Shown: piece by piece, positions 35,234-49,995 of the stretch
Position numbering within the stretch: the stretch's first letter is position 1
Layout of the letters: each line of letters begins with the position of its first letter
Notes under the pieces: generated by a model
The model's database searches: none
Seen by the model: the letters and a program-made list of their open reading frames with translations, nothing else
What the model was told of the DNA's origin: nothing
Source of the DNA: a virus
Reading direction: 5' to 3' (one strand)
Length of the DNA stretch: 64,000 bases
IMG/VR virus record: IMGVR_UViG_3300040801_006072
Span: 1 to 64,000 of that record
Translations under genes and position numbers: made by a program

Positions 35234-35698
35234 TTACCATTTACGACACGACCAGTATCTGGCCTTGTGCTTCGGTCCCGGATTATCGCAGTTATGTCTA
35301 GCTCTGAAACTTTTTCTTGCTTTAGGATTAGACTTTTTAATCTTCATGTCTGGATCACCAAAGTTTACCTTAACAACATTGCCTTTGGGATTCTTCACAT
35401 AAACTTTAAATTTTTTAACATCGCCTCGCATTGGCTTGTTTAGTTTAACTTTGCGTCCTTGATACTCTGCTTCGCCCAACGATGACTCAACCTCCTCGTC
35501 TAGCAAGTCAGATTCGAAAAATACTTCCTCGACTTCTTCTAAGGTAATTTCGTCTAGTTCGTAGCCTTCTGGGACACAGTTAGGAACCTTTTTTCCGTTC
35601 TTTGTTTTGTGTCCGACCATTTGATAGCCTTTCCAGCAAGGGTCGCCGCCTTTAATTCTTTTATTTTCACCTTCATTTAAAATATCAGAAAGTCTCAT
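35234..35698 (-). CDS. basic phage protein with capsid-targeting-like N-terminus, 154 aa
   Basis: MRLSDILNEGENKR has L-N-E before G. Two segments I recall as recurrent in T4-like cyanophage virion proteins: GGDPCWKGYQMVGHKTKNG near the N-terminus and the basic C-terminal block with KSNPKARKSFRARHNCDNPG ending YWSCRKW. An acidic middle joins them. Processed head protein is the best guess. Confidence 0.65.
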   Translation of the reverse strand: MRLSDILNEGENKRIKGGDPCWKGYQMVGHKTKNGKKVPNCVPEGYELDEITLEEVEEVFFESDLLDEEVESSLGEAEYQGRKVKLNKPMRGDVKKFKVYVKNPKGNVVKVNFGDPDMKIKKSNPKARKSFRARHNCDNPGPKHKARYWSCRKW

Positions 35699-35978
35699 CT
35701 GGATTTTCCCCTACGCACTGATTATGCTTTTCCTGCGCTTTATATTCCAATGAAGTTCTTGCGCTATCTAGATAATCTTTTGCCAGTGTAATTTTTGATT
35801 GAACCTAGCCCTCTAGACCCTCACTTTCGGGAATATCTTTAATAAGGTCATGCAAAAACTTGCTGTCTTGCTGTATGCGATGCAAGGCAGCTTTGGCCAT
35901 ATGCACTTCATGATCGTCCTTTTGGTTATAAGGATTATCAATTGCCTTCTGCGGAATCTGGATTTCGTCTAATTTCAT
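35685..35978 (-). CDS. late protein interrupted by one in-frame UAG, 97 codons
   Basis: Frame from ATG 35978 to TGA 35685-35687 is open except for UAG at codon 58 (35805-35807). The sequence around it, EGLEG-UAG-VQSKITLAKDYLD, belongs to a short family I recall in T4-like cyanophages with Trp at the interrupted position. Its true stop overlaps the next start by 14 nt, as usual here, which argues that the full frame is the gene. Without readthrough a 57-aa peptide is made. No Shine-Dalgarno; late octamer 5 nt upstream. The DDHEVHMAKAAL part is helical; function unknown. Confidence 0.7.
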
Positions 35979-35983
35979 ACTGG

Positions 35984-35991
35984 TATTTATC
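35984..35991 (-). promoter_or_regulatory. late octamer GATAAATA, leaderless position
   Basis: GATAAATA-CCAGT-ATG: only 5 nt between octamer and start codon, no Shine-Dalgarno. It overlaps the UAG stop of the muramidase gene. Confidence 0.6.
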
Positions 35992-36605
35992 TATTGTATC
36001 TTATCTATCACCAGTCGGTTGACCCAACCTCGAATAAACCTTTCCTGTGTGCTGTCTTCTTCGGCTCTTCCTACGTAAAATGAGCCGCGCAATATAAGCA
36101 ATAGCTTGAGCACGTAAATATCGCTCTCTACGCTAAGACACTTGGTTAGTGCCATAGCAGTACGTGTTCCTGCCCAGCCGTCGACTTTGAGATCTTCGAA
36201 CAGTGCTTGATCACGATTCAGCATGTTTAGCGTCCTTTGCAGGAATTCTGCTGCTCGCTTCACACCCATGTTAACAGAACAATCGAACATTTCTGCTGCA
36301 ATTTCTTTAGATTTGCTGCTCACACTGTCTAGGTTTAACTGACTGTGGTTCCAGAAGTTCTCGTAATAAAAGTGTTTAACCCAATAATTAAGTTCTTCGT
36401 CGGCATACAAGCATTCAGGAAAATCTTCTTGCTCCTTTAGTTCGTCTACAACTTTCCAGCCAGGCCAATTAGGCCAATAAACTCTGCTCACACCCTTATA
36501 TGTTTCTCCGCCATAGTCAGAAGGATCATCTACATAGCCTCCTTCGGCACTGCGAGTGAAAGCATAAGCCTCTAAAAATACTTCAGGTATAGCTACGTCT
36601 GTCAT
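35991..36605 (-). CDS. GH108 N-acetylmuramidase (endolysin), UAG stop
   Basis: Glycoside hydrolase 108 motif SAEGGYVDDPSDYGGETYKGVS with catalytic Glu21, followed by a peptidoglycan-binding-type C-terminal domain (about 105-180: EMFDCSVNMGVKRAAEFLQ ... DGWAGTRT). Cleaves the glycan backbone. 204 aa. The stop is UAG, and the next codons INTS lead in frame into the ATG of the following gene, so readthrough would give a fusion. Whether it is a free endolysin or a virion enzyme is open. Confidence 0.85.
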   Translation of the reverse strand: MTDVAIPEVFLEAYAFTRSAEGGYVDDPSDYGGETYKGVSRVYWPNWPGWKVVDELKEQEDFPECLYADEELNYWVKHFYYENFWNHSQLNLDSVSSKSKEIAAEMFDCSVNMGVKRAAEFLQRTLNMLNRDQALFEDLKVDGWAGTRTAMALTKCLSVESDIYVLKLLLILRGSFYVGRAEEDSTQERFIRGWVNRLVIDKIQ

Positions 36606-38068
36606 GATATTTCTCCTAGCTGTCTTCCGACTAGCAGTTTAATTAGGTCTTGTGTGCTATCTGCGGATTTAGCACCTTTCTTCATGTTTTCTAATTCACC
36701 GAACAGTGATGCAAACGCCTGTAGTGTTTTCTTGTCGACTTCGTCTGTGTAGCCAAATTTTCTTTTGCTGTCGCCCACGTCAAGCTCGATGCTAAGATCA
36801 GCTTTGGTATCGTTATATTCTGACAAAAGATTTTCTAACTTGGTTTCGTATTGGTTGATTACACTGACCCAATATTGTTGTAACTCGGGGAAGTTAGTAC
36901 CGTCTGCTAGATTATCTAGTATCTCTTCACGACTGTCGCCCTGCTTCCTAAGATGACGCTTGGCCTGTGTAGTACCTAGTTCAGGGTGACCAATGGCAGA
37001 AGATAAGCTGCCTAGAAGCTTACCTAAGAAACTCTCTACGGTGTTGACTGACCTAGGCTTTTCGCGAAGGTCGTTGCGCACTTGCCATATAAAGTCTTTT
37101 GCTGTAGTAAACAGATCTTTGTCCACTACCTTGAACTGGTCGCCTGTTTTCTTGTGGCGGAATACTACGCCTTCAATCCAACCACCATCTTCGACTTCTG
37201 GGCCAAATTCGCTTTTGATTTGTCTAACCAAGCGATTAAGCAGAATTTCTTTGATGCGCAGCTTATAGCCATCTTTGCTTTCGCCGCCTATCATTTCATG
37301 CTGTATTTCTTCTCGCTTGGTTTTAAGCTGCTCTTTGACACTACGCCAGTTTTGGGGTTCTACGGAATCTGGTCTACGGTTTAAAGGTAGTGCCAAAACT
37401 TCTGCATTTGAAAACTTCCATACACCAGAAGGCTGTTTAAGATATGCTTCTAATTTATCGAGCTCTGCATGAATGCGATCTTTTATCTCATCGTCTATCA
37501 TGCTTTCACTGTCCCATGTGGGTGTCCTGCTAAAAGACCAGCGGTGTGTTTCTGGTGCAGTCTTGATTGTCTTTCCGTCAACAGTATAAGGTGCGTTTAC
37601 ACGAACTGTAACGATATCTCCGTCTAATGCTTTATGAAGATGGGCAATGTCTACGTCACCCTCAACTACTCGCAAAAGAATAATCTCGTTCTCTTCGCTT
37701 GAGTAAGGTACTGCATTAGGTAGTGTACCAAACAGAACTTCAACTTCTATTCTGTCACCGCTTCTCATTCCGGCTTCTCGCATAACAGAAGCCTTTTGTT
37801 CTAGTGCAAGGTGAGCGGATCGCTGAAAGGTAGTAGAAAAATTAATGGGATAATCGTCAGCATTGTAAACTCGCTGTCCTCCCTTATCCTCACGAGTGGT
37901 GTAGAAGCCGTAGTCGTCAATGCCGAACTGTATATTGGCGCCATCTACTTTTTCAGATATCTCGTAATCTTCAAAGTTTCTCAGTGCATCTATAAACTGA
38001 TCAACTGCGAGATCCTCGACGTGAGTAATGCCTTCGAATGTTGACTTACGTAGTTCGCCGAATTTCAT
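36602..38068 (-). CDS. ATP-dependent RNA/DNA ligase-like protein, 488 aa
   Basis: Covalent nucleotidyltransferase motifs: motif I EKVDGANIQFG with Lys40, Arg59 after it, motif III RIEVEVLFG (107-114), motif IV EGVVFR (299-304) and motif V FKVVDK (312-317). This is the ligase/capping-enzyme superfamily, closest in style to Rnl-type RNA ligases. The gap between III and IV is long (about 185 aa) and a C-terminal extension of 170 aa is unassigned. N-terminus MKFGELRKS recalls the late-cluster proteins. Late-operon position is unusual for a repair enzyme. ATGA overlap with the muramidase. Confidence 0.75.
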   Translation of the reverse strand: MKFGELRKSTFEGITHVEDLAVDQFIDALRNFEDYEISEKVDGANIQFGIDDYGFYTTREDKGGQRVYNADDYPINFSTTFQRSAHLALEQKASVMREAGMRSGDRIEVEVLFGTLPNAVPYSSEENEIILLRVVEGDVDIAHLHKALDGDIVTVRVNAPYTVDGKTIKTAPETHRWSFSRTPTWDSESMIDDEIKDRIHAELDKLEAYLKQPSGVWKFSNAEVLALPLNRRPDSVEPQNWRSVKEQLKTKREEIQHEMIGGESKDGYKLRIKEILLNRLVRQIKSEFGPEVEDGGWIEGVVFRHKKTGDQFKVVDKDLFTTAKDFIWQVRNDLREKPRSVNTVESFLGKLLGSLSSAIGHPELGTTQAKRHLRKQGDSREEILDNLADGTNFPELQQYWVSVINQYETKLENLLSEYNDTKADLSIELDVGDSKRKFGYTDEVDKKTLQAFASLFGELENMKKGAKSADSTQDLIKLLVGRQLGEIS

Positions 38069-42756: not shown

Positions 42757-43125
42757 GTGGATATTACAGAAGTACAAGAAAAGTTCCCGTTCCTAACCGG
42801 TCTGAAATACCAAGATCGGGAATTCCTCTGCATCATACAAAATCATAGTGACAAGATCATGAGCTTCTATGATTTCAATCAAATCTCCACATCAGCAGAA
42901 AAACAACTGTTTTTAGACTATGGCGATACATGGTGGTGGGAATCGAACAGACTTCTGCCTATCAATATCTTCCTAACAGGAAAAATGGCTCACTTCAGGT
43001 ACTGCTTAAAAACAGTAGCAATGAAAGATGTAGAAATTCTGTTCGGTCCCACAACAAGTCTTAATAACCTAATGAAGAAAAGAATCAAAAAGCGTCAGAT
43101 TCAACTCGTTAGGAAATCCGATTAA
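42757..43125 (+). CDS. conserved phage hypothetical, 122 aa, only plus-strand gene
   Basis: GTG start. Contains FLDYGDTWWWESNR and LPINIFL, a block I recall as conserved in T4-like cyanophages, and a basic C-terminus (KKRIKKRQIQLVRK). Faces the release-factor gene tail to tail, the two stops overlapping. Function unknown; RNA or DNA binding possible from charge. Confidence 0.75.
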   Translation: MDITEVQEKFPFLTGLKYQDREFLCIIQNHSDKIMSFYDFNQISTSAEKQLFLDYGDTWWWESNRLLPINIFLTGKMAHFRYCLKTVAMKDVEILFGPTTSLNNLMKKRIKKRQIQLVRKSD

Positions 43126-43805
43126 ATCTTCTTTCCTTTTAGCACATCCTTTAACACCAACTTATTATTTGTAGAATGAACCAATACCGTGTTGTCCTTC
43201 TCACGGTAAGTTTTGATCTTATCTCCACGCATACCCGATCCTGCTAGATCTTTGCACATTGCTTTCTCTTCGCAGCGCCGAATTGACTCGTAATGTTCGC
43301 GAACACGCTCTTCTAACAAACGCCTAGCTTCGGTGCGATTATAGTGCTGGCACTTCTTTGCGCTTTTCGCTTCAATGCCCGTTGGCAAATGTCGCATGAC
43401 GACACAGCTTTCAGTTTTGTTGCGATGTTGGCCGCCTGGGCCAGAATCTTTAGTTGTGAATGTTTCTATGTCACTATCATGTAACTCGTAGTTCACAACA
43501 TCTTGTTTCTTACGAGCAACCACAGTCACAGTAGAAGTGTGCACACGACCACGAGTTTCCGTAGGTGGGACTCTTTGCCAGCGATGGCCGCCGGATTCAT
43601 TCAGTAAGGGTTGTAGGTTTTTCTCTTTACCAGAACAGCAAAGAGTAATGGAATTTCAGCCGCAGGCTGCTCGAGACTCAGCAATGGTCTCTACGTGAAG
43701 ATTGTGCTTGGCACAGTAATTTTGATAAATCGATGCTTGCTTCTCTACTAATAGCTTTGCATCATCGCCGCCTTCGGCAGCTCTAATTTCAAGTAGTAAT
43801 TTCAT
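43122..43805 (-). CDS. class I release factor (RF1 type) with in-frame UGA at codon 50
   Basis: Hydrolyses peptidyl-tRNA at stop codons. Reads EIRAAEGGDDAK at the start of domain 2, PPT (80-82, RF1-type PxT codon-recognition motif) in GGHRWQRVPPTETRGRVHTS, and GGQ (124-126). Domain 1 of cellular RF1 is absent and the C-terminal helix is shortened. The frame is continuous except UGA at 43656-43658, at a position where cellular RF1 has an aromatic residue (GGY). GGAGGT precedes ATG. Expression needs UGA readthrough or internal starts; an internal GTG at 43544 would give a GGQ-only, ArfB-like product. Confidence 0.8.
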
Positions 43806-49911: not shown

Positions 49912-49922
49912 CCTATGTTTGG

Positions 49923-49995
49923 TGCTCCGGGTGGGACTCGAACCCACGACCGGCGGTTTTAGAGGCCGCTGCTCTGCCAACTGAGCTACCGGAAC
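49923..49995 (-). tRNA. tRNA with CUA anticodon (amber suppressor type)
   Basis: 73 nt folding as a standard cloverleaf: acceptor GTTCCGG/CCGGAGC (one G-U), D-stem GCTC/GAGC, T-stem GTGGG/CCCAC, 5-nt variable loop, discriminator A73. Anticodon loop is CTCTAAA: C32 U33, anticodon CUA, A37 A38, so it reads UAG. The stem has a C31-A39 mismatch. The loop differs by one base from the tRNA-Trp loop CTCCAAA, but A73 and G1-C72 are not Trp identity elements, so the charged amino acid is unknown. No encoded CCA. Confidence 0.85.

What the first reader, a model, noticed from the sequence alone, without database searches (positions are those of the whole stretch)
35685..35978. Late gene with a single in-frame UAG at a conserved Trp position
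Open frame from ATG to TGA except UAG at codon 58; the natural stop overlaps the next start, so the whole frame appears selected. In relatives I recall GLEGWVQSKIT, with Trp where UAG stands. A CUA tRNA is encoded 14 kb away. This looks like a gene that depends on suppression, so the tRNA could act as a timing or dosage switch for it.
Basis: partly seen in the sequence, partly recalled or inferred. Interest (0 to 1): 0.85.

Follow-up and report, generated by a model that had tools for sequence, protein, structure and literature searches.

The report
Phage gene with stop at invariant tryptophan
A T4-like phage gene really does carry a stop codon exactly where every relative has tryptophan, and the phage has a tRNA that could read it, but nothing shows this is a deliberate switch; nearby lies a stronger find, a phage release-factor gene that, like most of its relatives, can be made only if the ribosome gets past a UGA stop.

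Summary
In detail: window 35685-35978 (-) is one coding frame broken once, by UAG at codon 58 (35805-35807). It is the only stop in the 69-kb record with clear coding on both sides and no restart. An unbiased relative set has Trp (TGG) there in 80/80 loci. A well-folded CUA tRNA lies at 49920-49995.

The "switch" is not supported. UAG ends about ten other genes. The closest relative keeps the CUA tRNA at the same place but lacks this gene. The tRNA is not clearly a Trp tRNA. Only one metagenomic contig exists, without reads. Most likely this is a real amber allele of a small accessory gene, tolerated because the phage suppressor tRNA reads it partly.

The better find is 43122-43805: an RF1-class release factor interrupted by in-frame UGA (43656-43658). 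Of 85 phage homologues, 67 carry in-frame UGA and 13 a CUUUGA +1-frameshift site like bacterial prfB. The mechanism switches on the tree, while neighbouring genes are not UGA-recoded. I found no report of a UGA-gated phage RF1, and a 2025 survey found no such control of bacterial RF1.

The parts
35685..35978 (-). Amber-interrupted gene, 97 sense positions plus stop; predicted two-helix hairpin domain (DHEV...EGLEG-W-VQSKIT family), function unknown
   Evidence: Translation; family alignment; AlphaFold2 model, helices 23-45 and 55-89; only stop in 69 kb with coding on both sides
35805..35807 (-). In-frame UAG, codon 58, in place of an invariant TGG (Trp)
   Evidence: 80/80 TGG in an unbiased relative set
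35991..36605 (-). Lysozyme gene (GH108 + PG_binding_3) ending in UAG at 35991-35993, in the same frame as the amber gene, four codons before its ATG
   Evidence: Pfam; frame
35234..35698 (-). Next gene (DPCWKGY / RHNCDNPGP motifs); its ATG overlaps the end of the amber gene; third gene of a cassette absent from the closest relative
49920..49995 (-). tRNA gene with CUA anticodon (ARAGORN label Pyl reflects the anticodon only); A73, Lys/Trp-like, charging unknown
   Evidence: ARAGORN, Rfam 63.2 bits, fold, syntenic CUA tRNA in L082, relatives
43122..43805 (-). RF1-class peptide release factor (PPT and GGQ motifs, no domain 1), needs bypass of an in-frame UGA
   Evidence: NCBIfam RF1 182.5 bits against RF2 103.2; PDB matches; translation
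43656..43658 (-). In-frame UGA, codon 50 of the release-factor gene; same frame on both sides
   Evidence: UGA gate in 80 of 85 homologues

Best explanation
The UAG is a real amber codon that replaced an invariant TGG (one G-to-A change) in a small accessory gene of a T4-like phage that otherwise uses the standard code. Without suppression the ribosome stops after 57 residues and the second helix of the predicted hairpin is lost. With the phage's own CUA tRNA, some ribosomes insert an amino acid (Lys, Gln or Trp; which one is unknown) and make the 97-residue protein. The pre-existing suppressor tRNA most likely let the mutation be tolerated; the gene was not built as a switch. Shown: the codon, the invariance of Trp, intact coding downstream, the tRNA gene and its retention in a relative. 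Inferred: that the tRNA is charged, that it reads this UAG, and that the product matters.
For: Coding signal and family motif continue unbroken past the UAG, with no other stop or frameshift. Trp is invariant in 80/80 unbiased loci. The CUA tRNA folds properly and is kept at the same place in the closest relative with a different but still paired acceptor stem. The rest of the contig is clean: genes compared with G001 are collinear and show no broken frames that need explaining. The gene belongs to a cassette absent from G001, hence dispensable in this lineage.
Against: A single metagenomic record without reads; no close relative with the gene, so neither fixation nor selection on the part after the UAG can be measured. 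If the tRNA inserts Lys or Gln, an invariant Trp would be lost, which argues against a working product. About ten genes end in UAG, so strong suppression would be costly.
Confidence: 0.5

Rival explanations
1. The amber is a consensus error, a minority strain variant, or a freshly broken copy of a dispensable cassette gene; no full-length protein is made and the CUA tRNA is unrelated to it.
For: One contig only; one base change; the cassette is absent from the closest relative, so the gene can be lost. CUA tRNAs occur in related and unrelated phages without such a gene. Trp is invariant in all relatives, so a non-Trp insertion might not rescue.
Against: No other unexplained broken gene was found in the contig, and the part beyond the UAG shows no decay. 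The co-presence of a CUA tRNA makes a purely dead allele less necessary.
Confidence: 0.36
2. One reading: the amber is selected, and the CUA tRNA sets timing or dosage of the full-length protein.
For: Single UAG at an invariant Trp plus a phage CUA tRNA; the same window holds another gene whose expression needs a stop-codon bypass.
Against: The amber is not conserved in any relative. The sister keeps the tRNA without the gene. UAG ends about ten genes without special backup stops. No excess of UAG-interrupted genes in relatives that carry CUA tRNAs.
Confidence: 0.1
3. Two UAGs in one frame serve to make a minor lysozyme-hairpin fusion: the lysozyme gene ends in UAG in frame with the amber gene, so suppression of both gives a protein of about 306 residues.
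For: Frame continuity from 36638 to 35685 broken only by UAGs at 35991 and 35805.
Against: In-frame arrangement has a one in three chance; double suppression is inefficient; no lysozyme neighbour of the hairpin domain was found in the relative loci; the amber gene has its own ATG.
Confidence: 0.02
4. The phage is TAG-recoded (code 15) and the UAG is simply a sense codon.
For: A CUA tRNA is present.
Against: Only one in-frame UAG in 69 kb; about ten genes end in UAG; the release factor encoded is RF1-class, whereas TAG-recoding phages are reported to carry RF2 (PMC13037316).
Confidence: 0.02

Closest known systems
CUA suppressor-type tRNAs in phages such as Sinorhizobium phage Phosso and Xanthomonas phage XacN1
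   Same: Same anticodon and a very similar tRNA core (87% and 81% identity)
   Different: There no amber-interrupted gene has been tied to the tRNA; here one candidate exists
TAG-recoded (code 15) phages such as crAss-like and Lak phages
   Same: CUA tRNA; in-frame UAG in a gene
   Different: One in-frame UAG only, UAG still used as a normal stop, RF1-class instead of RF2 factor
Bacterial prfB (RF2) programmed +1 frameshift
   Same: Early UGA gates a release-factor gene; 13 phage relatives have CUUUGA, most with an upstream purine-rich SD-like stretch
   Different: The factor is RF1-class; the site lies in domain 2, not near the N-terminus of a full-length RF2; most members, the window included, use in-frame UGA read-through instead of a shift
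RF1 genes of code-4 phages (described in PMC10746230)
   Same: Phage-encoded RF1; in-frame UGA
   Different: Neighbouring genes use TGG for Trp (1.7% of codons) and 84 of 281 long ORFs end in TGA, so the surveyed phages are not code 4; only the release-factor gene is interrupted

Membership tests
TAG-recoded (code 15) phage | Many genes with in-frame UAG | tested here: not met
   One such stop in 69 kb
TAG-recoded (code 15) phage | UAG avoided as terminator | tested here: not met
   About ten genes end in UAG
TAG-recoded (code 15) phage | CUA tRNA | tested here: met
Programmed read-through gene | The stop is conserved among relatives | tested here: not met
   TGG in 80/80 unbiased loci; no close relative carries the gene
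Programmed read-through gene | Coding conserved after the stop | tested here: met
   Family motif and codon signal continue
Amber suppressor tRNA | CUA anticodon in a foldable tRNA | tested here: met
Amber suppressor tRNA | Charged and reads UAG in vivo; amino acid known | not testable with these tools
   Sequence is ambiguous between Lys-like and Trp-like
Class-I release factor RF1 | GGQ and PxT motifs, RF1 above RF2 score | tested here: met
   182.5 against 103.2 bits; PPT and GGQ
Class-I release factor RF1 | Full length with domain 1 | tested here: not met
   Profile match starts at position 106 of 347; below the curated RF1 cut-off
prfB-type UGA gate | Early UGA that must be bypassed | tested here: met
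   43656-43658 in the window and 80 of 85 homologues
prfB-type UGA gate | CUUUGA slip site with upstream SD-like stretch | tested here: not met
   Not in the window gene (in-frame UGA); CUUUGA present in 13 relatives incl. sister L191, most with the SD-like stretch
prfB-type UGA gate | Encoded factor reads UGA (autoregulation) | not testable with these tools
   The PxT motif predicts UAA/UAG, so the gate would sense RF2 or UGA decoding, not itself

The most novel reading that the evidence does not exclude
The phage carries a termination-control circuit: a CUA tRNA that raises UAG decoding, an RF1-class factor that restores UAG/UAA termination but is made only when UGA is bypassed (a sensor of weak RF2), and at least one gene whose full-length product follows the resulting UAG state.
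Probability: 0.1. Interest if true: 0.9.

Novelty: new variant of a known kind. Interest (0 to 1): 0.62.

Why it matters
The amber gene would be a rare natural case of a phage nonsense allele living with its own suppressor in an otherwise standard code, a plausible first step toward stop-codon recoding. The release-factor finding matters more: phage RF1-class genes appear to be gated by UGA through two different mechanisms that replace each other in evolution, although bacterial RF1 is reported to lack such control. It makes a direct question testable: do these phages sense RF2 or UGA decoding during infection to decide when to take over UAA/UAG termination?

Tried and rejected
TAG recoding of the whole phage: rejected. 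UGA recoding (code 4) as the reason for the release-factor UGA: rejected for the surveyed loci (the rough coverage table alone was not clean enough to decide). Hidden paralogue of the amber gene that would make it redundant: none in 69 kb. The amber gene in the closest relative: absent with its whole cassette, so no close comparison was possible. Shorter extensions behind UAG stops as a trace of suppression: no difference from TAA/TGA genes (few genes). Co-occurrence of CUA tRNA and UGA-gated release factor: the window and five gated phages (G003, G011, G012, G013, G018) have CUA, one has a UUA tRNA (record of L207), two have none in the regions read (G020, G021), and records without the release factor are split two and two, so nothing is concluded. 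No phage, Pfam or PHROG match for the amber gene, so its function stays unknown.

Full report
What is there. The window is 64 kb of a 69,037-base virus record of metagenomic origin, T4-like by terminase and tail sheath. On the minus strand 35978-35685 there is one reading frame, ATG to TGA, of 97 sense positions with a single UAG at codon 58 (35805-35807). The next gene starts inside its end. Directly upstream, a lysozyme gene (GH108 plus PG_binding_3) ends in UAG and is in the same frame, four codons before the ATG. A scan of the whole record for stops flanked on both sides by coding sequence without a restart gives only this UAG.

Trp conservation. The first search used a pattern that contains the Trp, so its 80/80 Trp is biased. 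I repeated it with an alignment of the 45 residues before the Trp (A2): 80/80 loci again have TGG, in 42 distinct peptides. In the alignment of the whole domain, G54-L-E-G-W-V-Q-S-K-I-T64 is invariant. An AlphaFold2 model from 25 sequences shows two helices, 23-45 and 55-89, with residue 58 at the start of the second (mean pLDDT 77, above 90 over the helices). Termination at codon 58 would remove that helix, so the 57-residue product is unlikely to work (inference).

The tRNA. The CUA tRNA at 49995-49920 (-) matches the tRNA family (63.2 bits) and folds as a cloverleaf-like structure. The closest relative by terminase (67%, L082, record G001) has a CUA tRNA at the same syntenic place with a different but still paired acceptor stem. 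The best nucleotide matches are tRNA-Lys genes of Streptomyces phages (88%) and CUA tRNAs of Sinorhizobium phage Phosso (87%) and Xanthomonas phage XacN1 (81%). The anticodon loop CUCUAAA followed by A39 is one change from a typical tRNA-Trp loop and also one change from a tRNA-Lys loop (comparison with tRNA-Trp from my own knowledge), so the inserted amino acid is open.

Why I do not call it a switch. G001 is collinear with the window from 59.8 to 31.9 kb but lacks the three genes 35234-36605 altogether, while it keeps the tRNA. About ten window genes and four G001 genes end in UAG, with extensions no different from those of other genes. Three CUA-bearing phages read almost whole (G011-G013) and part of a fourth (G003) show no excess of UAG-interrupted genes. 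So the tRNA is not kept for this gene, and the amber is seen only in this record. The simplest account is a nonsense allele tolerated because a suppressor is present; an error or a dead gene is the main rival, and only reads can decide.

The stronger finding in the same window. At 43805-43122 (-) lies a peptide release factor with GGQ and a PPT motif, RF1-like rather than RF2-like (182.5 against 103.2 bits) and without domain 1 (PDB matches). It is interrupted by an in-frame UGA at codon 50 (43656-43658) with the same frame on both sides. A profile search gave 80 IMG/VR loci; with four huge-phage records and the window, 85 genes were compared (75 distinct sequences). Sixty-seven have in-frame UGA: most at codon 36, others near codons 42 and 50, always early. 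Thirteen have instead a break of frame at CUUUGA, most with a purine-rich stretch such as GGAGG or GGGAG just upstream, the layout of the bacterial prfB +1 frameshift. Four show no gate and one (L244) is unresolved. Three closely related genes carry UGA and also UAG, at codon 50. A tree of the 75 distinct sequences puts the window (UGA read-through) as sister of L191 (frameshift) with 100/99 support and needs several changes between the classes. The flanking genes are not recoded: TGG makes up 1.7% of codons in long ORFs and 84 of 281 such ORFs end in TGA. Hence the UGA is specific to the release-factor gene.

Reading of that pattern. A gate that is kept while its mechanism and exact position change is best explained by selection for UGA dependence itself (inference, about 0.8 likely). 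Since the PxT motif predicts reading of UAA and UAG, the gate would measure RF2 activity or UGA decoding, and the factor would supply UAA/UAG termination when RF2 is short. If the factor turns out to read UGA, it would be plain self-regulation as in prfB. The library I could search describes the prfB gate as RF2-specific and finds no such control of bacterial prfA (PMC12421855); it mentions release factor 1 in code-4 phages (PMC10746230) and in huge phages (PMC7162821), but I found no report of a UGA gate in phage RF1 genes. Subscription papers and preprints are largely absent, so novelty is provisional.

Link between the two. Both bear on UAG: the tRNA would raise read-through, the RF1-class factor would lower it. 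A circuit is possible but unproven; CUA tRNAs were found both with and without the release factor. I give that reading 0.1. The interest score is carried mainly by the release-factor gate; the amber gene alone would be about 0.35.

Noticed in passing
window 43122-43805 (-), UGA at 43656-43658; L162, L163, L165, L191-L270: RF1-class phage release-factor genes need bypass of an early UGA: 67 of 85 by in-frame UGA, 13 by a prfB-like CUUUGA +1 shift, in phages that are not UGA-recoded.
   Followed up: yes
L197, L198 (5001-5657) and L202 (3194-3850): These release-factor genes carry two in-frame stops, UGA at codon 42 and UAG at codon 50; relatives have UGA at the second place.
   Followed up: partly
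L244 5001-5658: Release-factor gene whose N- and C-terminal parts lie in different frames around a UAG, without the CUUUGA site; mechanism unresolved.
   Followed up: no
L403 13775-13850 (-), record of L207: A tRNA with UUA (ochre) anticodon in a phage whose release-factor gene uses the CUUUGA frameshift.
   Followed up: no
L082 9153-9162: The UAG stop of the gene upstream of the CUA tRNA is formed by the first bases of the tRNA itself (GTCCCTGTAG).
   Followed up: no
window 35685-36638 (-): Lysozyme gene and amber gene share one frame broken only by two UAGs, so double suppression would give a fusion protein.
   Followed up: partly
L384-L398, L404-L407, L413, L419; L271, L272: CUA-anticodon tRNAs are common in tRNA-rich phages of this survey that do not appear TAG-recoded; what they are for is open.
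   Followed up: partly
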